Part shown: positions 1,110 to 42,918 of the stretch, in pieces
How the letters are laid out: every line of letters begins with the position of its first letter
Numbering within the stretch: the stretch's first letter is position 1
Source of the DNA: Parvularculales bacterium
Lineage (GTDB): Bacteria > Pseudomonadota > Alphaproteobacteria > JAPOUT01 > JBAJNM01
NCBI GenBank assembly: GCA_036881865.1
Contig: JBAJNM010000013.1
Location: 1 to 43,388, forward strand
Direction: 5' to 3'
Length of the DNA: 43,388 bases
Notes under the pieces: generated by a model
Told to the model about the DNA's origin: nothing
Database searches by the model: none
What the model saw: only the letters and a program-made list of their open reading frames with translations
Made by a program: the position numbers and the translations under genes

Positions 1110-3318
<2,209 letters not shown>

Positions 3319-3322
<4 letters not shown>

Positions 3323-4605
3323 GTGCGACTGTCCAACACATAACGGATTCCGTAGAGACTACGGCCCACGCATTAGGCAGGGCCTCCCGTGAGGCTGCCG
3401 AGGTATTAGCGTGCCTTGGGCCTAAAGCGAAAGAGGCAGCATTGCTGGCCGCCGCCATGACCATGCGGGCGGATGCGGGTGATATTCTTGACGCTAATGC
3501 TCGCGATTTAGAGGAAGCATCCCAACGGGGGCTTGCCGAAGCCAAGCAGGAGCGTCTCACCCTTAATGATGAGCGTGTAGAAGCCATGGCTACAGCTCTG
3601 GAAGATATTGCGGCCCTGCCGGACCCTGTAGGACAAACCGTTAGTGAATGGTCCCGGCCCAACGGGCTTAATATTCGCCGGGTGCGTACTCCTTTGGGAG
3701 TTGTTGGGGTCATTTATGAAAGCCGCCCCAATGTAACGGCGGATGCCGGTGCCCTGTGCCTAAAAGCAGGGAATGCGGTTATCCTCAGGGGTGGGTCAGA
3801 ATGTTATCACTCCAACCGTGCCATTCATGAATGTCTGAAGCAGGGCCTTATTGCTGCAGACATACCGGAGGGAGCCATCCAGTTGGTGCCCTCTCAGGAC
3901 CGGGCCTTTGTCAGCGCTCTACTGAGTGGTCTTGGTGGTGCTATTGATGTTATTGTGCCCCGTGGCGGGGTGTCACTTCTGGGGCGGGTTAAGGCTGAAG
4001 CGCGAGTGCCGGTGTTTGGTCATCTGGAGGGGGTCTGCACGATTTTTGTAGACCGTGAGGCTGACCTTGCCATGGCCCGCGACGTTGTCGTGAATGCCAA
4101 GCTGCGACGCACCAGTATTTGCGGGGCGGCAGAAACCCTGCTGGTAGATGAGCAATGTGCTGCCACTCACCTTAAGCCCCTTGTGACAGATTTGCTGGAT
4201 GCCGGATGCGCCGTGCGGGGGGATCAGGCAACGCAGGCCGTTGACCCCCGTGTTGAACCGGCAACACAGGAAGATTGGCCACGGGAATATCTGGATGCCA
4301 TCATCAGTGTAGGGGTTGTCGCCGACGTGCAGGCCGCTATGGCCCATATCGGCCGCTATGGATCCCAACACACGGAAGCCATCATCACCGACAATGAAAA
4401 AACAGCGGCTTTGTTTCTTGATCAGGTGGACAGTGCCATTGTTATGCACAACACCTCCACCCAATATGCCGACGGAGGTGAGTTTGGCATGGGCGCGGAG
4501 ATTGGCATTGCCACAGGACGACTGCATGCGCGCGGGCCGGTCGGGGTTGAGCAGTTGACCAGTTTTAAATATCAGGTGCGGGGCTCAGGTCAAACGCGCC
4601 CCTAA
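3319..4605 (+). CDS. proA: gamma-glutamyl phosphate reductase
   Basis: 428-residue aldehyde-dehydrogenase-fold enzyme. It reduces gamma-glutamyl phosphate with NADPH to glutamate semialdehyde, the second proline step. Family motifs visible are [31 protein letters not shown], the nucleophile region [10 protein letters not shown] with Cys268, and [20 protein letters not shown] near the C-terminus. The ATG overlaps the proB stop (ATGA). This kinase-reductase pairing is universal, because the labile acyl phosphate is channelled between them. Length is normal and no lesion is seen. Confidence 0.97.
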
Positions 4606-4618
4606 CCCCTCCCTCATC

Positions 4619-5227
4619 ATGCGTGCCAACCCTGCCATAGGTGTTCCCGCCCCTGAAGCGGGTATGCGGATAGGTCTTCTTGGGGGCTCATTCAATCCGG
4701 CTCATAAGGGGCATCTTGACCTGAGCCTGTGCGCCCTTGCCCGCCTTGACCTCCATCAGGTGTGGTGGGTGGTATCACCCCGGAACCCTCTCAAAGAGAC
4801 ACTTCAGGTTGCGCCTTATGAGGAGCGGCTTGAACGGGCACACGATCTGGCACAACATCCCGCTATTGTCGTTAGCGATATAGAGTACCGAATGGGGCTG
4901 CGTTATACCATTGACACCATAACCGCCCTTCAGAACAGAAACCCCGGCGTGGACTTTGTGCTTTTGCTCGGCGCCGATAATGTGTTGCAATTACCCCATT
5001 GGCGGAATTGGCGGAAAATTATCATGCGGCTACCTCTGGCCGTAATGCCCCGCGCACCCTATACGCGAACCGCCCGAACAGGAAAAGTGGCTCAAATCGT
5101 TAATAATCACCACGTTTATGGCCACACTGACAACCTGCATGCACATCTCAGACCTCCGGCCCTTATTTTTCTTGAGGGGCCGGAAAACCCCCTCTCGTCA
5201 ACCGCATTGCGAAATAAAGAGACCTGA
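4619..5227 (+). CDS. nadD: nicotinate-nucleotide adenylyltransferase
   Basis: 202-residue NadD, which converts nicotinate mononucleotide and ATP to deamido-NAD. The nucleotidyltransferase signature GGSFNPAHKGH (22-32, with HxGH at 29-32) is present, as is the C-terminal SSTALR (compare ISSTxIR). The middle contains LLGADNVLQLPHWRNW. An internal ATG at 4664 (residue 16) would begin right at the Rossmann strand; neither start has a strong Shine-Dalgarno. The gene follows proA by 13 nt. In related genomes rsfS normally follows nadD; here egtB-egtD intervene. Confidence 0.95.
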   Translation: MRANPAIGVPAPEAGMRIGLLGGSFNPAHKGHLDLSLCALARLDLHQVWWVVSPRNPLKETLQVAPYEERLERAHDLAQHPAIVVSDIEYRMGLRYTIDTITALQNRNPGVDFVLLLGADNVLQLPHWRNWRKIIMRLPLAVMPRAPYTRTARTGKVAQIVNNHHVYGHTDNLHAHLRPPALIFLEGPENPLSSTALRNKET

Positions 5228-5254
5228 CCCGGAGTATGTGTGCCTCCTTTCCGG

Positions 5255-5283
5255 TTGACAGTGCCCCTCCATTCGCGTTTATT
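5255..5283 (+). promoter_or_regulatory. weak promoter candidate in the nadD-egtB gap
   Basis: A perfect -35 TTGACA (5255-5260) is followed after 17 nt by TTTATT (5278-5283), a 4/6 match to TATAAT. It is about 190 nt before the egtB start and upstream of the repeated motif cluster at 5378-5423, which suits promoter plus downstream operators. Support is sequence only. Confidence 0.3.
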
Positions 5284-5377
5284 TGACTATATGCCCCTAC
5301 GTTGCGCACGCATGTTGCGCCGTTTATGCTTCATCTTATGTATCATCGGTGAAAAGGAAAAAGCAGGTTAGAGAGCA

Positions 5378-5423
5378 TTAACCCTCACATTTGGTGGATA
5401 ACCTCCATTTGGACCCGAGGTTA
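5378..5423 (+). promoter_or_regulatory. repeated motif array (candidate operator) upstream of egtB
   Basis: Three related sites lie in 46 bp. TTAACCCTCACATTTGG (5378-5394) and ATAACCTCCATTTGG (5398-5412) are direct repeats whose TAACC cores are 20 bp apart. TAACCTC (5399-5405) also pairs with GAGGTTA (5417-5423) as a perfect 7-bp inverted repeat with an 11-nt spacer. This arrangement of a direct repeat plus a dyad two helical turns apart is typical of a transcription-factor site about 50-95 nt before the egtB ATG. The factor is unknown. Confidence 0.4.
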
Positions 5424-5472
5424 ACAGGTATTTCCCCTGTCTTTGGCTCCCTGTCTTTGCCCCACAGGATTT

Positions 5473-6888
5473 ATGACAAGCGATATTCTTATACATCCCG
5501 CATCCCATGATGCTGCGCACCGCACGCAGACCCGAGATCCTACCCCTTGTCATCATCCGCCAGCACACCGCGATGACCGCGAAGGCTTTTTGCACTGGTA
5601 CAATACGGTTCGTACCGATAGTCAGATTCTGGCCGACCCCCTCGCACCGGAAGACATGGTTATCCAATCCATGCCGGATGTCAGCCCCACCAAATGGCAT
5701 CTGGCTCATACCAGCTGGTTCTTCGAAACATTTCTGCTTACTCCCTACGTATCTGCATACGAACCGCCCAATGCCATTTATGGGCACCTTTTCAATTCTT
5801 ATTATGAAGGCATAGGACAGCCTTTTTCCCGTCTCCGACGCGGCATGATATCGCGCCCTACCGTTAGTGAGATTTTAGACTATAGAGCGCAGGTGGATGC
5901 TGCCATGGCAGCGTTTATTCTCAACGCCCCCCAGGACACATGGCGCGAAGCGGCGGCTTTTGTCAGTCTGGGTCTTCATCATGAACAACAGCATCAGGAA
6001 TTGATGCTCACCGACATTAAGCACGTACTCTCTGAAAACCCCATGATGCCTGCGGCCTATAAAGCCGTTGATGATTTCAGGGGCAATATGGCAGAAGCAC
6101 AAGCTCTTGAGTGGCATGCTTTTGATGGCGGGCTTGTTGACATCGGACACGACAGTCAGGGAACAGACCCCGCTCTGGATTTCGCTTTTGATAATGAAAG
6201 CCCCCGCCATGAACAATTAGTGCGTCCGTTTTTATTGGCCAACCGGTTGATCACCAATGGAGAATATTTATCCTTTGTAGAAGATGGCGGGTACCAAAAC
6301 CCTCTGCTCTGGCTGGCTGACGGATGGAGTCAGGTGCAGGAAAACAACTGGGTAGCCCCTCTTTATTGGCAACGGGGTGAGGGATATGACTGCGAGCAAA
6401 GCGATGTCTGGCGGGAGTTCACGCTGGCGGGCCTCGTGCCGTTAAATCCGGCCACTCCGGTCTGTCATTTGTCTTATTACGAGGCCGATGCCTTTGCCAG
6501 ATGGGCAGATGCGCGGTTACCCTCGGAAGAAGAGCAAGAACATGCAGCGAACGGGCAGTCTATCACGGGTAATTTTGGCCGCATGATCATCAAGGGAATT
6601 GCCCACGCCGTTCATCCCGACCCTGCTACAAAAAACGGCACAACACCAAATCAGATATACGGAGACGTATGGGAGTGGTCTCACAGTGCGTACGCCGCCT
6701 ATCCCGGTTATCGTCCAGCTCAAGGGGCGGTGGGGGAATACAACGGTAAGTTCATGTGTGGACAATATGCTCTGCGCGGCGGCAGTTGTGCTACACCGAC
6801 GGGTCACGTGCGCTTGACGTATCGCAATTTCTTTCCTCCCAGTGCGCGCTGGCAGTTCTCCGGTCTGCGCCTTGCGCAGGATGCCTGA
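5473..6888 (+). CDS. egtB: ergothioneine biosynthesis sulfoxide synthase EgtB
   Basis: 471-residue non-haem iron enzyme that joins a thiol donor to hercynine with O2 in ergothioneine synthesis. The N-terminal DinB-like domain carries WHLAHTSWF (His76/His79) and the iron motif HX3HXE, HEQQHQE at 170-176. The C-terminal formylglycine-generating-enzyme fold includes GDVWEWSHS and ends in ALRGGSCATP...RLTYRNFFPP. I start at ATG 5473 because the frame upstream offers only TTG 5443. Its partner egtD begins 20 nt downstream. The pair appears inserted between nadD and rsfS. Thiol-donor preference cannot be told from the sequence. Confidence 0.93.
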   Translation: MTSDILIHPASHDAAHRTQTRDPTPCHHPPAHRDDREGFLHWYNTVRTDSQILADPLAPEDMVIQSMPDVSPTKWHLAHTSWFFETFLLTPYVSAYEPPNAIYGHLFNSYYEGIGQPFSRLRRGMISRPTVSEILDYRAQVDAAMAAFILNAPQDTWREAAAFVSLGLHHEQQHQELMLTDIKHVLSENPMMPAAYKAVDDFRGNMAEAQALEWHAFDGGLVDIGHDSQGTDPALDFAFDNESPRHEQLVRPFLLANRLITNGEYLSFVEDGGYQNPLLWLADGWSQVQENNWVAPLYWQRGEGYDCEQSDVWREFTLAGLVPLNPATPVCHLSYYEADAFARWADARLPSEEEQEHAANGQSITGNFGRMIIKGIAHAVHPDPATKNGTTPNQIYGDVWEWSHSAYAAYPGYRPAQGAVGEYNGKFMCGQYALRGGSCATPTGHVRLTYRNFFPPSARWQFSGLRLAQDA

Positions 6889-33272: not shown

Positions 33273-36053
33273 ATGGCCTTGCTGGACGATTTCGTCAGGC
33301 GATTTTTCTCCGCCTCGCCCGAGCGCAAGGTAAAGTCCTATCTGGCCCGTGTGGACCGTATCAACGCTCTGGAGGACGAGTATCAGGCCCTTGACGATGC
33401 GGCCCTGACCGCCAGGACCGGTGACTTCAAACAACGATTAGCCGAAGGCGCGTCCCCGGACGACATACTGCCGGAGGCTTTTGCTACGGTACGCGAGGCC
33501 GCAAGGCGCACTCTGGGTCAACGTCATTATGACGTGCAGCTCATCGGCGGCATGGCGCTCCACGAAGGCCGGATTGCCGAGATGAAAACCGGCGAAGGTA
33601 AAACTCTGGCATCCACTCTGCCGGTTTATCTAAACGCGCTGACAGGACTGGGTGTTCATGTGGTGACGGTGAATGATTATCTGGCACAGCGCGATGCCGA
33701 ATGGATGGGCCAGATCTACCGGTTTTTAGGTCTTGAGGTCAGATGCATTCTTCATGAGATGAGCGATGAAGAACGCCGCGCCGCCTATCATGCCGATATT
33801 ACCTACGGCACCAACAATGAATTAGGTTTTGATTATTTACGCGACAATATGAAATATCAAATCGACGATATGGTGCAGCGTGACCATGTATTTGCCATTG
33901 TTGACGAGGTGGACAGTATCCTGATTGATGAAGCGAGAACACCTCTTATCATCTCCGGTCCGGTGGAAGGTCAACAGGACCTTTATACAAAAACAGACAT
34001 GATTATTCCGGATTTAACGCCGGACGATTATGAGCTGGACGAAAAAAACCGCACCGTCTCCCTGACGGAACAGGGAACGGAACATGCCGAGCAACTCCTT
34101 ACCGATACGGGCCTCATAGAAGGAGAGTCGCTCTATGACGTAGAGAATGTCTCTGTCGTTCATCATCTTAATCAGGCGCTTCGTGCCCATACCCTGTTTC
34201 AGAAGGATAAGGATTACATCGTCAAGGGTGACCGGGTGGTCATTATCGATGAATTCACCGGACGCATGATGGAAGGCCGCCGGTATGGCGATGGCCTGCA
34301 CCAGGCGCTGGAAGCCAAAGAAAAGGCAGAGATACAACCCGAAAACCAGACGCTGGCCTCTATTACCTTCCAGAACTACTTCCGGCTCTATAACAAGCTC
34401 GCAGGCATGACCGGTACGGCGGCAACCGAGGCGGAAGAGTTCATGGATATTTACGGTCTGGACGTCGTAGAAATTCCCACCAATGTTAACGTCCAACGCG
34501 ACGATCAGGATGATGAGATTTACCGGACCGCCAAGGAAAAATATGACGCCATTCTGGAACTCATCAGGGATTGCCATACGCGCAAGCAACCTATTCTGGT
34601 GGGCACTACCAGTATTGAAAAATCCGAATATCTTGCCGACATGCTCAAGAAAGCAAAAATCCGTCATACCGTCCTCAATGCCCGTTACCATGAACAGGAA
34701 GCCCATATCATCGCCCGGGCCGGTATGCCCGGTGCCGTTACCATCGCTACCAACATGGCCGGCCGCGGCACGGATATTCAACTGGGCGGCAATCCCGACA
34801 TGCGTATCGAAGATGAAACCCAAAATGCCGCCCCCGAAAAGCATGACGCGATTATTAAAAGCATACAAACGGATACGGGCCGGCAACGCGAACAGGCCAT
34901 GGAACAAGGCGGGCTTTTTGTTCTGGGCACCGAGCGTCATGAAAGCCGCCGCATAGACAATCAGCTCAGAGGCCGCTCGGGACGTCAGGGCGACCCCGGC
35001 ACGTCACGTTTTTTCCTCAGCCTTGACGATGATCTGATGCGTATCTTCGGCTCCGACCGTCTGGACGGCATGCTTCAAAAACTGGGCCTTAAAGACGGCG
35101 AGGCCGTTGTTCATCCGTGGATTAACAAGGCACTGGAGCGGGCACAGAAAAAAGTTGAAGCCCGCAACTTCGACATCCGCAAGAACCTGCTCAAATATGA
35201 CAATGTGATGAACGATCAACGCCGTGCCATCTTTGACCAGCGCCTTTCCATGATGCGCACTGATGATATCAGCGATACCATTGTTGATATGCGTCACGAA
35301 CTGGTAAGCGATATGGTGGATGGGCATGTTCCCGAAAAGGCCATGTCGGAGCAATGGGACATGGATGGCCTTGAGCAGTCCATTATTGATTATTTTGATA
35401 CGCTGCTTCCGGTGCGCGCCTGGGGTCAGGAAGAAGGTATTGCCGGAGAAGAAATCAAAGAACGTCTGACTGAGGCTACGGATAATCTCATGGCGGCCCG
35501 CGTGGCTCAAATCGGTGCACCGACCATGCGTCAGGTTGAAAAAGCCGTGCTACTGCAAACTCTGGACCATCACTGGCGGAACCATCTCAGTGCCCTGGAC
35601 CATCTGCGACAAGTCGTCGGGTTGCGGGGCTATGGTCAGCGTGATCCTCTCAATGAATATAAAACGGAGGCTTTTAGTCTGTTTGAAGGGCTGCTTTCCC
35701 GGCTGAGAAGCGATGTCACACGTCAGCTGGCGCGGATAAAAATTTCAGCGCAGACACCGCCTCCCCAACTGGAAGACACGCCGCTTCCGGCAATGGAAGC
35801 CCACCACATTAATCCTCTCACGGGACGCGATGAAATGTCAGACAGCACGCCGGACGTACGTTCCATGCCGCCACCGGGTGTTCCAAACGCCGGCGCAATG
35901 CCGCAATCTGCGCCACAATCCGGTGCTCCAAACGCCGGAGGCGCCGCCGCACCCCCTAATGAGCCGGCCCGCTCTACCAAAGTTCCCCGCAATGCCCCCT
36001 GCCCCTGCGGGTCGGGCAAAAAGTACAAACACTGTCACGGTAAAATTGCCTGA
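33273..36053 (+). CDS. secA: preprotein translocase ATPase SecA
   Basis: 926-residue motor of Sec export. It carries Walker A MKTGEGKT (ending at residue 111), [22 protein letters not shown], the helicase-like [15 protein letters not shown], and [20 protein letters not shown]. The C-terminal SEC-C zinc tail has Cys910, Cys912, Cys921 and His922. A Pro/Asn/Ala-rich linker (about 850-895) contains short repeats such as PNAG. The last ~120 bp, encoding the tail from [14 protein letters not shown] onward, recur at 37705-37828 behind the next gene. The gene is intact. Regulation may involve the upstream leader inverted repeat. Confidence 0.98.
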
Positions 36054-36057
36054 CGCC
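35934..36057 (+). repeat. direct repeat, secA 3' end, copy A
   Basis: These 124 bp cover the end of the secA linker, the whole SEC-C zinc tail, the stop codon and 4 bp beyond. Aligned without gaps to 37705-37828 there are 6 mismatches by my count (about 95% identity). The coordinate offset is 1771 bp, and the ATPase gene lies between the copies. Confidence 0.95.
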
Positions 36058-36160
36058 CAAGACTAAAACACCCTTGATGTTTTTAGGGGCTTATATATAA
36101 AAAGTGCCCAAAATAATTTCCCGCCAAAGTCATCCCTGCCCTCATTCCGGCCTGACCCGT

Positions 36161-36248
36161 ACTATTTCGACGGAAGAAATCTTTTTATATCAGATAGATA
36201 TATAAGGATGTTGCGATAAGGGTATTGTTGTGCCACTATTCAAACATG
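36161..36248 (+). repeat. R element copy 1 (leader of the ATPase gene)
   Basis: An 88-bp unit running from ACTATTTCGACGG to the ATPase start codon. It recurs without gaps at 40012-40099 and 42831-42918 (about 77% identity to each by hand count). Conserved blocks are TTTTATATCAGATAGAT and CGATAAG. In this copy TATATC-AGATA-GATATA is a dyad; TATC-AGATA-GATA remains in the other two. Identity with copy 2 continues 21 bp into the coding region. Confidence 0.85.
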
Positions 36249-37685
36249 CTGGAAATCGCAAAATCAGATGTCCTGAGGAGCCTGAGGCGGGACAATCCAT
36301 GGTGGAGCGCAGAATATGAACCACCGGCTGCCGGAGCGCAAATATACCGGGCGTATTTTTCGCGCTTTACTGAGCGGGCCCTCGATTGGGGCATAAAGCG
36401 TTCAACTATTCTCATGGGGCCGAGACGGGTCGGCAAGACCGTTATGCTTCGCCAAATGGTTGAAAACGCAATCAGAGAAGGTTTTGATGGCCGGAAGATC
36501 CTCTACGTATCCATAGACACGCCGCTTTATAGCGGCATGCCGCTCAGTCGCTTGCTTGAACTGTTTGAAGAAGAGACATCCCACAATCCGGAAGAGCAGC
36601 GCATTGTTATTTTCGACGAGATTCAATATCTCAGGGACTGGGAGGTTCACCTGAAGGTGCTAACGGACCGGTATCCGAACACACGGTTTGTGGGGTCCGG
36701 TTCGGCAGCCGCGGCACTTAAATTGAAGAGTCAGGATTCAGGAGCGGGGCGATTTACGGACTTTTTCCTGCCACCGCTGACCTTCTCAGAGTTTCTGGCC
36801 TTTCGGGAATTGGAAGATGATTTGATTGATACCCATTGGACGGGAAAATCAGTTGATTATATAACCTCCGATATTGAGCGTCTCAATAAAGAATTCATCC
36901 ACTATCTGAACTTCGGGGGATATCCTGAGACAGTGCTCAACAAGAACATTCAGACTGATGTCCGGCAATTTGTGGGACGGGATGTCATAGACAAGGTGCT
37001 GCTACGCGATTTGCCAAGCCTGTATGGCATTCAGGACATTCAGGAGTTGAACCGGCTTTTTATGACACTGGCTTATCACACGGGTCAGGAGATTAGTCCG
37101 GACAGTCTGTCGCAAAACTCCGGCGTCGACAAGAAGACGATCTCCAAATATCTGGATTATCTTGAGGCTGCGTTTCTAATCGTCAGGGTCAGACGGGTTA
37201 ACGAAACGGGAAAAACTTTTGCGCGGATGCGTAATTTCAAGGCCTACCTGACCAACCCTTCCATGCGCACGGCACTCTTCGCTCCGATTGAAGACGGGGA
37301 TAAGCATATAGGCGCGCTTGCAGAGACGGCAATCTTCTCGCAGTGGGTTCATTCGGAAGAGGTGAATGATATCTTCTATGCGAGATGGAAGAAGGGACGT
37401 TCAACTCAGGAGGTTGATTTAGTCCACGTTGAACCGGCCACATTGAAACCGACCTGGGCCACCGAGATCAAATGGTCAGACCGCTACGCTACCGATAAAT
37501 CCGGCGAACTGAAAGGCCTGTCGGAACTGGCAAAGCGCCATGCCGGTTTTCTGCTCTCAGTCAACGCAACGTCCAAGACAATGTCATGCGAGACCACGGT
37601 AGATGGTATTACGATTGAACACACCCCGTGCGCCCTCTACTGCTATACGGTCGGTAAGATCATCGCTGAGTGGGGAAGACACTAA
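36246..37685 (+). CDS. AAA ATPase with DUF4143 C-terminal domain
   Basis: 479-residue protein of the AAA_14/DUF4143 family, common accessory ATPases of unknown role. The N-terminus [20 protein letters not shown] is followed by Walker A GPRRVGKT (58-65), Walker B IVIFDEIQ (120-127) and FVGSGSAA. The C-terminal DUF4143 part carries a PD-(D/E)XK-like QEVDLV...ATEIKW. ATG 36246 is chosen because it and the next seven residues are conserved at 40097; in-frame TTGs lie upstream at 36225 and 36228. The gene lies between two copies of the secA 3' end, the second only 19 bp after its stop, and is led by R copy 1. Confidence 0.85.
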
Positions 37686-37704
37686 TGCGACGATTGGAGA
37701 GAAA

Positions 37705-37828
37705 GCCGGAGGTGCCGCCGGCCCCCCTAATGAGCCTGCCCGCTCCACCAAAGTTCCCCGCAATGCCCCCTGCCCCTGCGGGTCGGGCAAAAAGTACAAA
37801 CACTGTCACGGCAAAATTGCCTGACGCC
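37705..37828 (+). pseudogene. orphan second copy of the secA 3' end (SEC-C tail)
   Basis: Ungapped repeat of 35934-36057. Five of the six differences are single-site; by codon, four codons change silently and one changes Ala to Gly, so the encoded tail [20 protein letters not shown]...HCHGKIA is unchanged past that point. Silent differences suggest this copy diverged while still under selection, for example in the secA of another strain. It has no start of its own. The stem-loop CCTGATG-TCGGGTTT-CATCAGG (37827-37848) follows at once and may be the original secA trailer. Confidence 0.9.
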
Positions 37829-37848
37829 TGATGTCGGGTTTCATCAGG
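37827..37848 (+). other. 7-bp stem-loop behind the second secA end
   Basis: CCTGATG (37827-37833) pairs perfectly with CATCAGG (37842-37848) across an 8-nt loop. There is no T-run, so intrinsic termination is doubtful. GACGCCTGATGTC (37823-37835) also pairs imperfectly with GACATCATCAGGGCGTC at 37919-37935. The region separates the + strand genes from the convergent flavin-fold gene. Confidence 0.4.
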
Positions 37849-37949
37849 AATGATAAAAAATCAGGCTGGTTATAGTTTCCGGTATTAAAGAACCACGCCG
37901 GTTATCCGAATCAATAAAGACATCATCAGGGCGTCTTAAATCCGGAAAT

Positions 37950-38561
37950 TTAGTAAAGAAATTTCTTATATTGCTCTTCCGTTTCCGCCTGTGGCTCAGG
38001 CTCACCGGTAAACCCGATCTGATCCTTCATCATCTGCCCCATGCTGGGGAGTTTATCGCGATCTATTTTGTGAGCATCCCCCCACAACTGCGACCGCATC
38101 AGCGCTTTGGCGCAATGGATATAGGCTTCGACAACTTCAATGCAGACTACCGTTCTGGGCAATTTGCCTTTTGTAATAAATCTTTCCCGCAATTCTTTTT
38201 CTACCGAGATTGTAGCCTTACCATTAATCCGGAGTGTTTCATTGACACCAGGGATTAAAAACAACAATCCTACGCCCGAGTTTTTCAAAATATTCTCAAA
38301 ACTATCCAGCCTGTTATTTCCGGGCCAGTCCGGCAGTAATAGTAGCCGGTCACTTTCCACAGCAACAAAGCCAGGGGTACCACCGCGAGGTGTAGAGTCA
38401 CAAAGTTCATCTTCGCCATAAGTAGCCATGACCATGAAAGGCGACATGCTAATAAATTTGCGCATATGACCATCCAGTTTTGACAACTGTTTCAGGTCTG
38501 CGCCTTCTACTAGCGGCGGATATAACGCCCGGAGTTCTTCAACTGATTTTATCGTATTCAT
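37950..38561 (-). CDS. pyridoxamine 5'-phosphate oxidase-fold (FMN-binding) protein
   Basis: 203-residue protein of the split-barrel PPOX family, in the MSMEG_1061-like group. Visible features: DGHMRKFISMSPFMVMATYGED, CDSTPRGGTPGFVAVESDRLLLLPDWPGNNRLDSFENIL and VGLLFLIPGVNETLRINGKATIS. Such proteins bind FMN or F420 and reduce varied substrates; this one is not likely to be PdxH. ATG 38561 has AGGAG 8 nt upstream. It is divergent from the epoxide hydrolase gene, with which it may share an operator and perhaps a detoxification role. Confidence 0.85.
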   Translation of the reverse strand: MNTIKSVEELRALYPPLVEGADLKQLSKLDGHMRKFISMSPFMVMATYGEDELCDSTPRGGTPGFVAVESDRLLLLPDWPGNNRLDSFENILKNSGVGLLFLIPGVNETLRINGKATISVEKELRERFITKGKLPRTVVCIEVVEAYIHCAKALMRSQLWGDAHKIDRDKLPSMGQMMKDQIGFTGEPEPQAETEEQYKKFLY

Positions 38562-38700
38562 TTGTGATCTCCTGTAAGGATCATTACCGCAGAAATATCT
38601 GGTCCGGAGTTTTCCGGCCACGCTTTATGTTTTCTTCGGAATCCTGTGGTACCAGTGTCAATTGTACACTTTTTTACACTTTCCAAAACAATTTGAGAGA

Positions 38701-38715
38701 GCGTAAATTTTACGC
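38701..38715. promoter_or_regulatory. perfect 15-bp palindrome between divergent genes
   Basis: GCGTAAATTTTACGC is a perfect 7-1-7 palindrome in the 260-bp gap between the flavin-fold gene and the epoxide hydrolase gene. Nearby GTGTCAATTGTACAC (about 38656-38670) is a second imperfect dyad. The site resembles the palindrome upstream of argJ. It is a good candidate operator for one or both divergent genes. Confidence 0.4.
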
Positions 38716-38821
38716 ACCTAAAACAATAATTTATGGATCTGTGAGTAAAACTTAATTGTTTTGTAGACAGGTTAAGTGAAAATCAGACAAAATTAAAGAT
38801 TACTTACAAGGAGGATTAATC

Positions 38822-40006
38822 ATGAGCAAACCGAGTCCCTTTACCGTCGCCATATCCGATGAAACCTTATCGGGTATTTATGAGCGTGTTGCGTCTTACC
38901 GCTGGCATGAGATGCCGGACATCGAGGACGGGCAAGACCGCTGGGCCTACGGCACAGACATGACCTACCTGAAAGAGTTGTGTGCCTATTGGGTCAAAGA
39001 CTATGACTGGCGGCGGGGAGAGGCTTTGCTCAACCGGTTTTCTCACTACCACGCACCGGTTGACGGGACGGACATTCATTACATTCTGGAGCCGGGGTCG
39101 GGTGATGATCCCCGCCCCTTAATTATTACACACGGCTGGCCGGGGTCGGTATTCGAGTTTGCCGGTGTGATTGAGCAACTGGCTCATCCGGAGCGCTTTG
39201 GCGGACGCGCGGAAGACGGGTTAACCGTGGTTGCTCCCTCGTTGCCGGGTTACGGTTTTTCGGCAAAGCCGCCGCGTCCCGTAGGCCCGCGCCACACGGC
39301 TCAACTATGGGACAAATTAATGAGAGAGGCGTTGGAGTTTGATCGCTATACCGCCCAGGGGGGAGATTGGGGGTCTATTGTCTCCAGCTGGCTGGGCTAT
39401 GAACATGACCCCGAACATGGCGGGGGATGTGAGGCCATACACCTTAATATGTATAGCCTGCGGCCTCATGGCGTGAGCCCCGAAACTGACGAAGAACGCC
39501 AATGGGCGGAAAAAGCCGCCCTCACCCTTCAGATGGAAGGTGCTTATTTGCAGCTACAGATGACCAAGCCGCAAACTTTATCATACGGCATGATGGATAG
39601 TCCGGTCGGGGTAGCGGCATGGATTATTGAGAAGTTCAACACATGGAGCGATACGCGTGGAGACGATGGCAAATCTTTTATTGAAAACGCCTATTCAAAA
39701 GACGCGCTACTGGACAATATAATGGTGTATCTGGTGACGGAGACCTTCAACACGGCTACGTGGTTTTACCGGGGCATGATGGAGGAAGGTGGTGTTACCA
39801 TGGCCGACGGTCAACGTGTGACAGTGCCTACGGGGGTTGCCTATTTCCCTTATGAGTTCATCACCTTTCCGCCCCGCCGCATGATGGAGGCCGGATATAA
39901 CATTACCCGCTGGACGGAGTTTGACCGGGGCGGACATTTTGCCGCCATGGAAACCGGCTCCCTGTTTGCCGGGGACGTATTGGCCTTTGCGCGGGAGTTA
40001 TCCTAA
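38822..40006 (+). CDS. epoxide hydrolase, EHN/microsomal type (alpha/beta hydrolase)
   Basis: 394-residue alpha/beta hydrolase with the N-terminal EHN domain of microsomal-type epoxide hydrolases. Visible are the oxyanion motif HGWPG (104-108), the nucleophile Asp182 in GGDWGS and the catalytic His372 in FDRGGHFAAME. It opens epoxides to diols; the natural substrate is unknown. AAGGAGG lies 7-8 nt before the ATG. There is no signal peptide. Its last 107 bp, including the catalytic His codon, recur at 42720-42826, and R copy 2 starts only 5 bp after the stop. Confidence 0.92.
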   Translation: MSKPSPFTVAISDETLSGIYERVASYRWHEMPDIEDGQDRWAYGTDMTYLKELCAYWVKDYDWRRGEALLNRFSHYHAPVDGTDIHYILEPGSGDDPRPLIITHGWPGSVFEFAGVIEQLAHPERFGGRAEDGLTVVAPSLPGYGFSAKPPRPVGPRHTAQLWDKLMREALEFDRYTAQGGDWGSIVSSWLGYEHDPEHGGGCEAIHLNMYSLRPHGVSPETDEERQWAEKAALTLQMEGAYLQLQMTKPQTLSYGMMDSPVGVAAWIIEKFNTWSDTRGDDGKSFIENAYSKDALLDNIMVYLVTETFNTATWFYRGMMEEGGVTMADGQRVTVPTGVAYFPYEFITFPPRRMMEAGYNITRWTEFDRGGHFAAMETGSLFAGDVLAFARELS

Positions 40007-40099
40007 CTCAAGTTATTTAGACGGGAGAAAGCCTTTTATATCAGATAGATAAATAAGAGCGTTACGATAAGATCAATGCTGTGATACTATTTCAACATG
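39901..40099 (+). repeat. 199-bp direct repeat, copy A: epoxide hydrolase 3' end plus R copy 2
   Basis: Aligns without gaps to 42720-42918 with 12 mismatches by my count (about 94%). The 107-bp gene-end part has only 1 mismatch; the other 11 fall in the R part and its approach. R copy 2 proper is 40012-40099 and ends in the ATG at 40097. The offset between copies is 2819 bp, enclosing the DUF3015 and DUF4105 genes. Confidence 0.95.
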
Positions 40100-40198
40100 T
40101 TAGAAATCGCAAAATCAGATATCAAAAATATCCTGAGCGGCAATTACAAAACATCATTTACGTATTTTCACAACATTCATGAGAGGGTTTCCCTATGA
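40097..40198 (+). CDS. 33-codon ORF, 5' remnant of an ATPase paralogue, coupled to the DUF3015 gene
   Basis: It begins MLEIAKSD, identical in protein to the start of the DUF4143 ATPase (one codon differs silently: CTG versus TTA), then departs as IKNILSGNYKTSFTYFHNIH. Its TGA overlaps the ATG of the next gene as ATGA. It is therefore either the relic of a second ATPase gene replaced downstream, or a relic now serving as a translated leader that couples ribosomes to the DUF3015 gene. No Shine-Dalgarno is obvious. Confidence 0.4.
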   Translation: MLEIAKSDIKNILSGNYKTSFTYFHNIHERVSL

Positions 40199-40716
40199 AG
40201 AAAGTTATATTTACCGTAGCAATGCTTGTTGCGTCTACCCTGGCTATATCAACCGGTGCAATTGCCCAAACAGCTTCAGAAATGAAGAGAGGAAATATCA
40301 ACCCATTTACACAATGCGGTATCGGTGGGGCAGTTTTCCCGAATGTACCCGTCGCTGCGGCTATCTCCAATGTTATCTGGGACATAGGTACAACGGCTTC
40401 TTCCTCCATGGTTTTCTCACCACAAACGTGTTATGGCAGAAGGCTAGAAGCGGCCGTGATTATCAATAAAACCTTACCTGAATTGGAAAAAGATATCGCC
40501 ATGGGTGAGGGTGAATATTTGACAGCACTGACAAGCACCATCAATTGCGACGGCATGACATCTTATAAGTTCAATGCCAACTTGCGTGAAGCCTATTCTG
40601 ATGTCACTCTGGACGTGACCTATGATAGTAAGTCTCATGTACAACGCGCCAGTGACATGTATGACACCGTCAGGCTAGTCACTTCCGAGTTTGAAGGTTG
40701 TAGTACCATTCTCTAA
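40195..40716 (+). CDS. DUF3015 family secreted protein
   Basis: 173-residue exported protein with a clean signal peptide (about 1-24, cut after AIA). The mature part has the DUF3015 pattern: NPFTQCGIGGAVFPN, SNVIWDIGTTASSS and SPQTCYG. Four cysteines (in TQCGIG, QTCYG, INCDG and EGCST) could form two disulfides. Function is unknown. The ATG lies in an ATGA overlap with the upstream mini-ORF; GAGAGG is about 8 nt upstream. The DUF4105 gene follows by 5 bp, with an intrinsic terminator near its start. Confidence 0.82.
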   Translation: MKKVIFTVAMLVASTLAISTGAIAQTASEMKRGNINPFTQCGIGGAVFPNVPVAAAISNVIWDIGTTASSSMVFSPQTCYGRRLEAAVIINKTLPELEKDIAMGEGEYLTALTSTINCDGMTSYKFNANLREAYSDVTLDVTYDSKSHVQRASDMYDTVRLVTSEFEGCSTIL

Positions 40717-40721
40717 TCAAG

Positions 40722-42653
40722 ATGCAATGTAACCTTGTCAACACAAGGGTAAAAGGCCACCTGATATGTTTGGTGGCCTTTTTCTTTCTGTGCCTTACTG
40801 CCAGAGTAGCGGAGGCTTTTCCGCAAAGCGTGCACTTTGACAGATTAAACTCAGAGGCATCTGAGCATTGGCAGACGCTAAATTATTATCATCAAACGAG
40901 TGATGATCTCTATATTTCAGAAATTGTTAATAGTGAATTTTTTCTCTCCCCTGAAGGTGCGCACAACCCTCAGGCTGAGCTCGAAGCTTTCGTGCAACTA
41001 CTTGAGCAGTCAAAGTATGATAAAACAGCCCGTCTGCGTCTGTGCGACTTCCCGGCCCGCATACGTTTTGTCAAAAAGCACCTTGTACCCCACGCCTCCT
41101 TCCCCCAGCCAAGTTGCGAAGAGTATCTAAGAAAAAACCGGCCCGATAAAATCACCTCCATTTCACTGGTCTATGCCAGCGGATATTATGACAATCCTGC
41201 TTCCTATTTTGGGCATGCGCTTATTAGGCTGAATTATGACAATCTGCCCATCAATCAGACATCTTTGGATTCAGGCATTAATTATGGTGCGAGCCTGCCC
41301 AATGACGTATCGATGATTGCCTATGTTGCCAAGGGTTTAACCGGGGGTTTTACGGGCAGTTATCAACGCAACAATCACTTTATCCACGGGCATCATTATA
41401 CAAACAGGGAAATCCGGGACCTGTGGGAGTATCGGCTAAATCTTACCCCTGAAGAGCAACGTTTTGTAGTCGAGCATAGTTGGGAAATCCGCCACGCAAA
41501 GTTCCGCTATTATTTCTTTAATGATAATTGTGCACACCGCATAGCACGTATGATTAACATGGCAACCGGTAATCATCATTCAGACAACTCGCATGGATTC
41601 TGGATGATGCCGATGCAGGTGGTTAGAGGCACCATAAGCCGCAATAACATGGCAAGTAAAACGTTCATCGCAGAAGAAATATACCACCCCTCTTTGCGCA
41701 AGAGATTTACAGACCAATACGAATATTTACCATCTGATAAACAACATCAACTGATCAACTTTTTAGGCAGTTCTCAAACCGTAAGAGAAGAAAAAATAAA
41801 CGCGCTAAACCCCGAACTACGACTTCTGGCGTTGGATTATCTAGATCTGCAAATTGCACGACAAACGATCAAAAGCAAAGACAAAGACAAGATGCACTCG
41901 CTACAAACTCAACGCTCCTTTCTGCTACGTTCCTTAATGACAGAACCCGCCGAACATGTTGTCAGAGACGCTTATGATACACGAACGCCTAACTCGCCAC
42001 TTGATTCCAATGCCGTCTCTTCCTTACGCCTGACTGTCGGCATGCGGGATAGTGAAAGTTTTGCACGCCTCGGCTATCGTATTGCCAACAATGATTTTCT
42101 GACTGCTCCCAACCCCGGGCAGGAAGCCTCCACTTTCATTGTCGCCGATATGGAAACGGAGTTAAGTGATGACTCCATTGAATTCCACAAATTCACCTTG
42201 CTAGATTTGAAAAACATCAACACCAACCCGCTTCCCTTAAGCCTGACAGGCGAGTTCTCATGGAGTTTCAAAATAAACTATGCCGCACGTAACAACCTCT
42301 GCACAGACTGTAAACGCTTCAATCTGGAAGGGGGTATTGGCACCGCGACAAGACTCAACCAATATATGATGCTTTATGGCCTGACAGGTATCAACCTCCA
42401 TAACCGCAGCAACGACAATGAAGAACCATTTTCCAGTTTCTCTGAACTGGGAGTGGTGCTTTATGTGAATGAGTATATCAGAGCGACTCTTACTTCCCAT
42501 TATGAATATGACCCACTTGAAAACAGGGACTGGAAGTTATTCAAAGCCAACGCAAGCTATGACATACGCAAAAACAACGACATACGATTCAGTGTAGAAA
42601 GCGATCTACATAACACTACTGCGCTGGTCAGCATAGGGTATTATTTTGATTAG
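40722..42653 (+). CDS. DUF4105 (Lnb-like N-terminal domain) outer-membrane-type protein
   Basis: 643-residue exported protein. The signal peptide is about 1-32 (cut after AEA). Region 140-290 is the DUF4105 domain: LVYASGYYDNPASYFGHALIRL with His165, and YYFFNDNCAHRIARMIN with Cys270. This His-before-Cys order resembles permuted papain/NlpC-type enzymes. I recall that this Pfam domain is now named after the Bacteroides lipoprotein acyltransferase Lnb; this should be checked. The C-terminal ~200 residues look like beta-barrel strands and end in an aromatic YYFD. A strong terminator hairpin lies inside codons 10-21. It is paired with the DUF3015 gene. Confidence 0.82.
   Translation: MQCNLVNTRVKGHLICLVAFFFLCLTARVAEAFPQSVHFDRLNSEASEHWQTLNYYHQTSDDLYISEIVNSEFFLSPEGAHNPQAELEAFVQLLEQSKYDKTARLRLCDFPARIRFVKKHLVPHASFPQPSCEEYLRKNRPDKITSISLVYASGYYDNPASYFGHALIRLNYDNLPINQTSLDSGINYGASLPNDVSMIAYVAKGLTGGFTGSYQRNNHFIHGHHYTNREIRDLWEYRLNLTPEEQRFVVEHSWEIRHAKFRYYFFNDNCAHRIARMINMATGNHHSDNSHGFWMMPMQVVRGTISRNNMASKTFIAEEIYHPSLRKRFTDQYEYLPSDKQHQLINFLGSSQTVREEKINALNPELRLLALDYLDLQIARQTIKSKDKDKMHSLQTQRSFLLRSLMTEPAEHVVRDAYDTRTPNSPLDSNAVSSLRLTVGMRDSESFARLGYRIANNDFLTAPNPGQEASTFIVADMETELSDDSIEFHKFTLLDLKNINTNPLPLSLTGEFSWSFKINYAARNNLCTDCKRFNLEGGIGTATRLNQYMMLYGLTGINLHNRSNDNEEPFSSFSELGVVLYVNEYIRATLTSHYEYDPLENRDWKLFKANASYDIRKNNDIRFSVESDLHNTTALVSIGYYFD
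40751..40783 (+). terminator. Rho-independent terminator inside the DUF4105 signal-peptide codons
   Basis: A perfect 11-bp stem AAAAGGCCACC (40751-40761) with GGTGGCCTTTT (40772-40782), a 10-nt loop and a following T/C tract. It lies 35 bp after the DUF3015 stop, so it looks like that gene's terminator, yet it is within the open frame of the next gene. Translation from ATG 40722 would melt it. Confidence 0.8.
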
Positions 42654-42719
42654 GGCCGGTTACAATATTATCCAGTACTATTTCACATAACTTACATTGC
42701 AACAAAAAATCCGGCACCG

Positions 42720-42918
42720 CATTACCCGCCGGACGGAGTTTGACCGGGGCGGACATTTTGCCGCCATGGAAACCGGCTCCCTGTTTGCCGGGGACGTATT
42801 GGCCTTTGCGCGGGAGTTATCCTAACGCGGACTATTTCGACGGAAGAAAGCCTTTTATATCAGATAGATGAATAAGAGCGCTACGATAAGATCAATGCTT
42901 TGATACTAATTCAACATG
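42720..42918 (+). repeat. 199-bp direct repeat, copy B: orphan epoxide hydrolase 3' end plus R copy 3
   Basis: 42720-42826 repeats the last 107 bp of the epoxide hydrolase gene with one change (TGG to CGG, Trp to Arg) and no upstream coding frame, so it is a gene fragment. R copy 3 (42831-42918) follows and ends in ATG, after which the frame closes within four codons (ATG ATC CCG ACC TAA). R3 and R2 differ at scattered sites, and R3 keeps the ACTATTTCGACGG edge of R1. Confidence 0.95.

What the first reader, a model, noticed from the sequence alone, without database searches (positions are those of the whole stretch)
39901..42918. A 199-bp direct repeat (epoxide hydrolase 3' end plus R) encloses the DUF3015-DUF4105 genes
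39901-40099 and 42720-42918 align end to end without gaps. The repeat joins the last 107 bp of the epoxide hydrolase gene to the R unit, and the two genes between them look like cargo. It mirrors the secA case: a gene end is copied downstream of newly placed genes. Two independent events of the same form within 7 kb point to a mechanism (tandem duplication with internal loss, or recombination of a circular intermediate) rather than chance. Recombination between the repeats would excise 2819 bp and leave an intact epoxide hydrolase gene.
Basis: partly seen in the sequence, partly recalled or inferred. Interest (0 to 1): 0.78.

Follow-up and report, generated by a model that had tools for sequence, protein, structure and literature searches.

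The report
Gene-end duplication around inserted cargo genes
The repeat is real: the tail of an epoxide hydrolase gene was copied when foreign genes were inserted behind it, and the adjoining repeat R is the promoter of a widespread candidate phage-defence gene (an ATPase joined to a nuclease domain) that sits in a similar gene-end duplication next to secA and, independently, next to gcvP in an unrelated bacterium.

Summary
The 199-bp repeat is confirmed at the stated coordinates (187/199 identical). It is a composite. 107 bp of epoxide hydrolase (EH) 3' end are nearly identical (1 difference) and stop 1 bp past the stop codon. A 6-bp non-matching junction follows, then 86 bp of R (6 differences). 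R is not anonymous: it is the promoter/operator and start codon of an AAA_14-DUF4143 gene (ATPase plus PD-(D/E)XK-type nuclease domain, defence candidate PDC-S01). Its core dyad TAAGATCA-N6-TGATCTTA precedes 57 of 87 family members across phyla, against 4 of 1475 control stretches. The first R runs into about 13 codons of a dead ATPase gene, so the cargo replaced an ATPase behind EH. A living ATPase gene lies 2.3 kb upstream, between secA and a 127-bp copy of the secA end. In a relative of the same order, secA and EH are adjacent, so the inserts are secondary. Independently, in a Bdellovibrionales MAG, an ATPase of this family is flanked by an about 124-bp duplication of the gcvP end with the same geometry. 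[quoted passage not shown] Whether the ATPase/nuclease causes it is untested; most family loci lack such repeats.

The parts
33273..36053 (+). secA, intact, its 3' end being copy 1 of the 127-bp repeat
   Evidence: ORF; 62-67% identity to SecA of three genomes of the order
35931..36057 (+). secA-end repeat copy 1, ends 4 bp past the stop codon
36147..36248 (+). R1: promoter/operator and start codon of the living ATPase gene; its dyad (36216-36239) is degenerate
36246..37685 (+). AAA_14-DUF4143 ATPase/nuclease gene (PDC-S01); the true start is 36246, not 36225
   Evidence: Pfam AAA_14 1.8e-29 and DUF4143 1.9e-21; PADLOC PDC-S01 3.7e-55; alignment A1 with Walker A/B and E-V-D..E-x-K motifs; AlphaFold pLDDT 89.7
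37702..37828 (+). secA-end repeat copy 2, truncated, 16 bp after the ATPase stop
37950..38621 (-). PNPOx-family gene, further insert between secA and EH
   Evidence: Pfam PF01243; absent between secA and EH in G001
38822..40006 (+). epoxide hydrolase gene, intact
   Evidence: Pfam EHN 6.3e-30; syntenic with secA in G001, 29 bp apart
39901..40007 (+). EH-end target duplication, copy 1
40014..40099 (+). R2: promoter/operator copy (dyad 40067-40090) ending on ATG 40097-40099
40097..40137 (+). relic of an ATPase N-terminus ([13 protein letters not shown]...), about 13 codons
   Evidence: homology with 36246-36286
40195..40716 (+). DUF3015 gene (cargo)
   Evidence: Pfam PF11220 4.1e-10
40722..42653 (+). 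Lnb_N/DUF7843/DUF7840 (DUF4105-type) gene (cargo)
   Evidence: Pfam PF13387 1.9e-38; 4 of 191 relatives
42720..42826 (+). EH-end target duplication, copy 2 (truncated)
42833..42918 (+). R3: solo promoter/operator (dyad 42886-42909) ending on ATG 42916-42918; no ATPase gene follows

Best explanation
The EH-end repeat is a long target duplication of about 107 bp, made when foreign DNA was inserted at the 3' end of the EH gene. The inserted DNA began with R2, the promoter/operator of an AAA_14-DUF4143 (ATPase plus PD-(D/E)XK nuclease, PDC-S01) gene; the body of that ATPase gene was later lost and replaced by the DUF3015 and DUF4105-type genes, which now lie behind R2. R3 to the right is resident sequence, the solo operator of an older ATPase gene at the same spot, so the 199-bp repeat is two abutting repeats. 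The same kind of insertion put a living ATPase gene behind secA (127-bp duplication) and, in an unrelated bacterium, behind gcvP (about 124 bp). Because the duplicated stretch reaches just past the stop codon, each target gene stays intact and the insertion is tolerated. Shown: the repeats, the identity of R, the ATPase relic, the ancestral secA-EH adjacency and the independent gcvP case. Inferred: that the copies arose in the insertion itself, that the ATPase element was the original insert at EH, and the order of events. Not shown: that the ATPase/nuclease performs the cut.
For: secA-end and EH-end copies. R is the ATPase leader and is followed at 40097 by an ATPase N-terminal relic. Dyad in 57/87 family leaders vs 4/1475 control stretches. 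secA and EH 29 bp apart in G001, without repeats or inserts; secA followed by other genes in G002. The ATPase is absent from the three other genomes of the order and present in 9/385 of the class. Independent gcvP case with the same geometry: repeat, 80-105 bp, operator region, ATPase, 12-16 bp, repeat; copies differ by 1 substitution and a 4-nt insertion, so they are recent. ATPase plus operator move as a unit with unrelated flanks: L010/L014, L010/L035, L047/L066. EH part and R part have different divergence, as expected if they have different origins.
Against: Only one of about 80 other ATPase loci with enough flank shows a gene-end duplication, so it is not an obligate product of the family. 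The secA copies differ mostly at third codon positions (5 of 6 differences, p = 0.018 against neutral decay), which also fits import of a foreign secA allele. ATPase orientation relative to the target gene differs between secA and gcvP. In EH the ATPase is gone, so its role there is inferred from a 13-codon relic. The two EH-end copies lie near a MAG contig end.
Confidence: 0.55

Rival explanations
1. Campbell-type or one-sided homologous integration: DNA from a related strain, carrying its own EH end + R + cargo (and secA end + ATPase in the other case), recombined with the resident gene end, leaving donor and resident 3' ends as direct repeats.
For: secA copies differ by 6 nt, 5 at third codon positions, 4 of 5 changed codons synonymous (p = 0.018), as if both had evolved inside intact genes; EH coding part conserved and R diverged fits two alleles; homology ends just past the stop codons.
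Against: EH-end and gcvP-end copies are almost identical including synonymous sites, and the truncated gcvP copy carries a frameshifting insertion. A donor allele is not known.
Confidence: 0.25
2. In-situ tandem duplication of a segment from the EH end through the cargo, followed by loss of the second cargo copy, or duplication by replication slippage after cargo arrival.
For: Direct orientation, one intact and one truncated copy; recent identity of the EH part.
Against: R2 and R3 are more diverged than the adjoining EH parts (p = 0.0015 or 0.010) and have a non-matching 6-bp junction; it does not explain why the same form recurs with the ATPase at secA and gcvP.
Confidence: 0.12
3. Remnant of an integrase-type element that restores the 3' end of its target gene (as recalled for prophage e14 in icd).
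For: Gene 3' ends restored through the stop codon; synonymous differences in secA.
Against: No integrase gene lies between either pair of repeats, nor in the 1.6 kb between the gcvP copies; targets differ within one genome.
Confidence: 0.05
4. Assembly chimera of strain variants in a metagenome bin.
For: MAG in 89 contigs; the feature lies within 3.5 kb of a contig end.
Against: Repeat copies differ in sequence, no N runs, and the same architecture occurs in an unrelated assembly.
Confidence: 0.03

Closest known systems
Insertion with long (and variable) target duplication (Nobusato et al. 2000, Gene 259:99, as cited in PMC1643837, PMC2749054, PMC3031569)
   Same: A horizontally acquired nuclease-bearing gene is flanked by long direct duplications of the target and carries no transposase; the duplications here are 107-127 bp.
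   Different: Described for restriction-modification genes from comparison of H. pylori genomes; here the gene is a single AAA_14-DUF4143 gene (or cargo that replaced it), without a methyltransferase, and the duplication ends just past a stop codon in three of three cases.
PDC-S01 (putative single-gene defence candidate; ATPase fused to PD-(D/E)XK superfamily; PMC12988326)
   Same: The window ATPase matches PDC-S01 profiles, has Walker A/B and nuclease motifs, and is spread patchily.
   Different: The cited paper reports prevalence and multiple transfers across domains; in the passages read it does not mention an operator dyad or target duplications.
Prophage e14 / icd type integration (from own knowledge)
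   Same: The element-borne or resident gene 3' end is duplicated and the target gene remains intact.
   Different: No integrase here, several unrelated target genes, insert of 1.6-2.7 kb.

Membership tests
Insertion with long target duplication | Foreign gene(s) flanked by long direct repeats of the target locus | tested here: met
   EH, secA; gcvP
Insertion with long target duplication | Empty site with a single target copy in a closely related genome | tested here: inconclusive
   G001 has secA-EH adjacent without repeats or inserts, but it is only a same-order relative; no other genome of the genus or family is held
Insertion with long target duplication | Absence of transposase/integrase in the insert | tested here: met
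Insertion with long target duplication | Association with restriction-modification genes | tested here: not met
   no methyltransferase; the ATPase carries a PD-(D/E)XK-type domain instead. This is the association found for the pattern, not a requirement of the event type
PDC-S01 / AAA_14-DUF4143 | Profile match over most of the protein | tested here: met
   PADLOC 3.7e-55 over residues 54-446; Pfam AAA_14 and DUF4143 above cut-off
PDC-S01 / AAA_14-DUF4143 | Conserved ATPase and nuclease motifs | tested here: met
   [17 protein letters not shown]389-V-D391, E407-x-K409 invariant or nearly so in 44 sequences
PDC-S01 / AAA_14-DUF4143 | Anti-phage activity | not testable with these tools
   experimental validation reported as pending for most PDCs (PMC12988326)
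Integrase-type gene-end element (e14-like) | Integrase gene within or near the element | tested here: not met
   none between the repeats

The most novel reading that the evidence does not exclude
The AAA_14-DUF4143 gene with its own operator is an autonomous single-gene mobile element: its nuclease domain makes widely spaced cuts (about 107-127 bp) at the 3' ends of genes, using its conserved dyad as recognition or end sequence, and the target duplications, solo operators and the cargo swap at EH are its footprints.
Probability: 0.12. Interest if true: 0.88.

Novelty: new variant of a known kind. Interest (0 to 1): 0.56.

Why it matters
PDC-S01 is reported as the fourth most common defence system or candidate across prokaryotes, with no tested mechanism (PMC12988326). 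This locus supplies two testable handles. One is a dyad in front of the gene conserved across phyla, which suggests that the protein reads its own operator. The other is recurrent insertion with long duplication of gene 3' ends, a mode of gene movement proposed in 2000 whose mechanism, to my knowledge, is still open. If the nuclease is responsible, one protein family would explain both its own spread and a class of transposase-free insertions.

Tried and rejected
R as an anonymous or dispersed repeat: rejected, only three copies in the genome, and it is the ATPase leader. Gene-end duplication as an obligate product of the ATPase family: rejected, only L047 besides the window; other flanking repeats were operator copies (L062, L068, L080, L196), paralogous genes (L053) or unclear (L037). 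Gene-end repeats as a common feature of this genome: in 800 kb sampled, one further gene-end case (metC, 80%) and one post-stop case (MgtE) were found; 200 kb of G012 gave none and 200 kb of G001 gave a different, dispersed intergenic repeat family. An exact R 24-mer scan of public genomes found nothing. Scans of viral contigs found no relative of the ATPase. The gcvP empty site in the genome of L066 could not be read because its contig is fragmentary. No solved structure matches by sequence; the fold search gives STAND/ORC/RuvB-type AAA ATPases. The right-hand neighbour of the locus in the relatives, accA, lies on another contig without R or EH remains.

Full report
Observation. The two stretches 39901-40099 and 42720-42918 are a gapless 199-bp direct repeat with 187 identical positions. 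The identity is uneven: 1 difference in the 107 bp of EH 3' end, 5 in the next 6 bp, 6 in the remaining 86 bp. The contrast is unlikely under one uniform divergence (p = 0.0015; 0.010 without the junction). The EH part ends 1 bp past the stop codon. The secA repeat (127 nt, 94.5%) ends 4 bp past the secA stop, and its second copy starts 16 bp after the stop of the gene placed behind secA.

What R is. The gene behind secA encodes an AAA_14-DUF4143 protein that matches the defence candidate PDC-S01. Sequence comparison puts its start at 36246. Its leader is R1. R2 continues past its ATG into about 13 codons alike to the ATPase N-terminus, so an ATPase gene once stood behind EH. R3 ends on its ATG and is a solo operator. 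In relatives from many phyla the leader carries the dyad TAAGATCA-N6-TGATCTTA with a fixed 6-bp gap: 57 of 87 leaders reach 12 bits, against 4 of 1475 control stretches of 400 bp. The matrix was built from 22 of these same leaders, which favours the leader count, but the contrast is very large. In Alphaproteobacteria the right half overlaps a plausible -10 box a few bases before the ATG, which suggests autoregulation and a leaderless transcript (inference). Four of 91 loci have a second dyad within 300 bp behind the gene (L062, L068, L080, L196).

The protein. In 44 relatives the Walker A (GPRRVGKT) and Walker B (VIFDEIQY) motifs and the E-V-D...E-x-K residues of a PD-(D/E)XK-type site are invariant or nearly so. 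The AlphaFold model is confident (pLDDT 89.7) and its best structural matches are STAND, ORC and RuvB-type ATPases. A 2026 paper describes PDC-S01 as an ATPase fused to the PD-(D/E)XK superfamily, very common, and repeatedly transferred between domains (PMC12988326).

History of the locus. In G001, of the same order, secA and EH are 29 bp apart with no insert or repeat, followed by a convergent accA. In G002 an ankyrin gene and accA follow secA. So 36058-38821 and 40008-42716 are secondary. The ATPase is missing from the other three genomes of the order and occurs in 9 of 385 genomes of the class. The large cargo protein occurs in 4 of 191 relatives, at 26-31% identity to the others. Cargo GC is low (5th-10th percentile), codon use only mildly unusual.

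Independent recurrence. In L047, a Bdellovibrionales MAG, the ATPase gene (612-2033) lies between the intact end of gcvP (2051-5491, minus strand) and a truncated copy of that end (334-461). The copies differ by one substitution and a 4-nt frameshifting insertion. Distances match the secA case: 80 vs about 90-105 bp before the operator region, 12 vs 16 bp after the ATPase stop. L047 and L066 share only the operator region and gene at 88% DNA identity, with unrelated flanks. L010 vs L014 and L010 vs L035 show the same at 79-80%. So gene plus operator move as a unit.

Mechanism. These features fit insertion with long target duplication, known from restriction-modification genes (Nobusato et al. 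2000, as cited in PMC1643837, PMC2749054 and PMC3031569). The 2010 follow-up was not held and the original was read only through these citations. The duplicated end keeps the target gene whole. For EH, the simplest reading is a 107-bp target duplication, with R2 as the left end of the insert and R3 as resident sequence from an earlier ATPase insertion. The main rival is recombination with DNA of another strain carrying its own gene end, for which the third-position bias in secA (5 of 6 differences) speaks. Causation by the nuclease domain is untested, and the rarity of gene-end repeats among other family loci argues against an obligate mechanism. Flanking direct repeats of any kind were found at 5 of 67 ATPase genes vs 2 of 173 control genes (p = 0.02), a weak signal of mixed origin.

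Limits. The window is a contig of a metagenome-assembled genome. No reads and no close relatives were available. The genome was sampled (about 800 kb) for further repeats, but R itself was searched in the whole assembly.

Noticed in passing
L130 1937-2024 and 10760-10849 (G000 contig C5): The last codons of a metC-like gene plus about 60 bp downstream are repeated at 80% identity 8.8 kb further on, enclosing a block of unrelated genes: an older gene-end duplication in the same genome.
   Followed up: partly
L138 6228-6610 and 10070-10443 (G000 contig C12): The region around the 5' end of a GNAT gene is repeated (75-78%) 3.8 kb upstream, enclosing an apolipoprotein N-acyltransferase gene.
   Followed up: partly
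L135 5516-5585, 10470-10550 and 2591-2618 (G000 contig C9): A hairpin-like element directly after an MgtE gene stop codon is repeated twice nearby.
   Followed up: no
leaders of AAA_14-DUF4143 genes, e.g. L029, L047, L050, L058, L060, L083, L203: A dyad TAAGATCA-N6-TGATCTTA conserved across phyla in front of a PDC-S01 type gene; L198 has two in tandem. No description was found in the papers searched.
   Followed up: yes
window 36216-36239 versus 40067-40090 and 42886-42909: The dyad is degenerate in front of the only living ATPase gene (R1) but well kept in the two solo copies R2 and R3; unexplained.
   Followed up: no
L165, L167, L169 (G001): A dispersed repeat of about 300 bp, several copies lying directly behind gene stop codons, in a genome of the same order.
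   Followed up: no
L203 (Acinetobacter plasmid pAs1069_b) 4001-5446: A 50% identical ATPase with the dyad in its leader region on a 13-kb plasmid that also carries an integrase-domain gene; one of only two plasmid records found.
   Followed up: no
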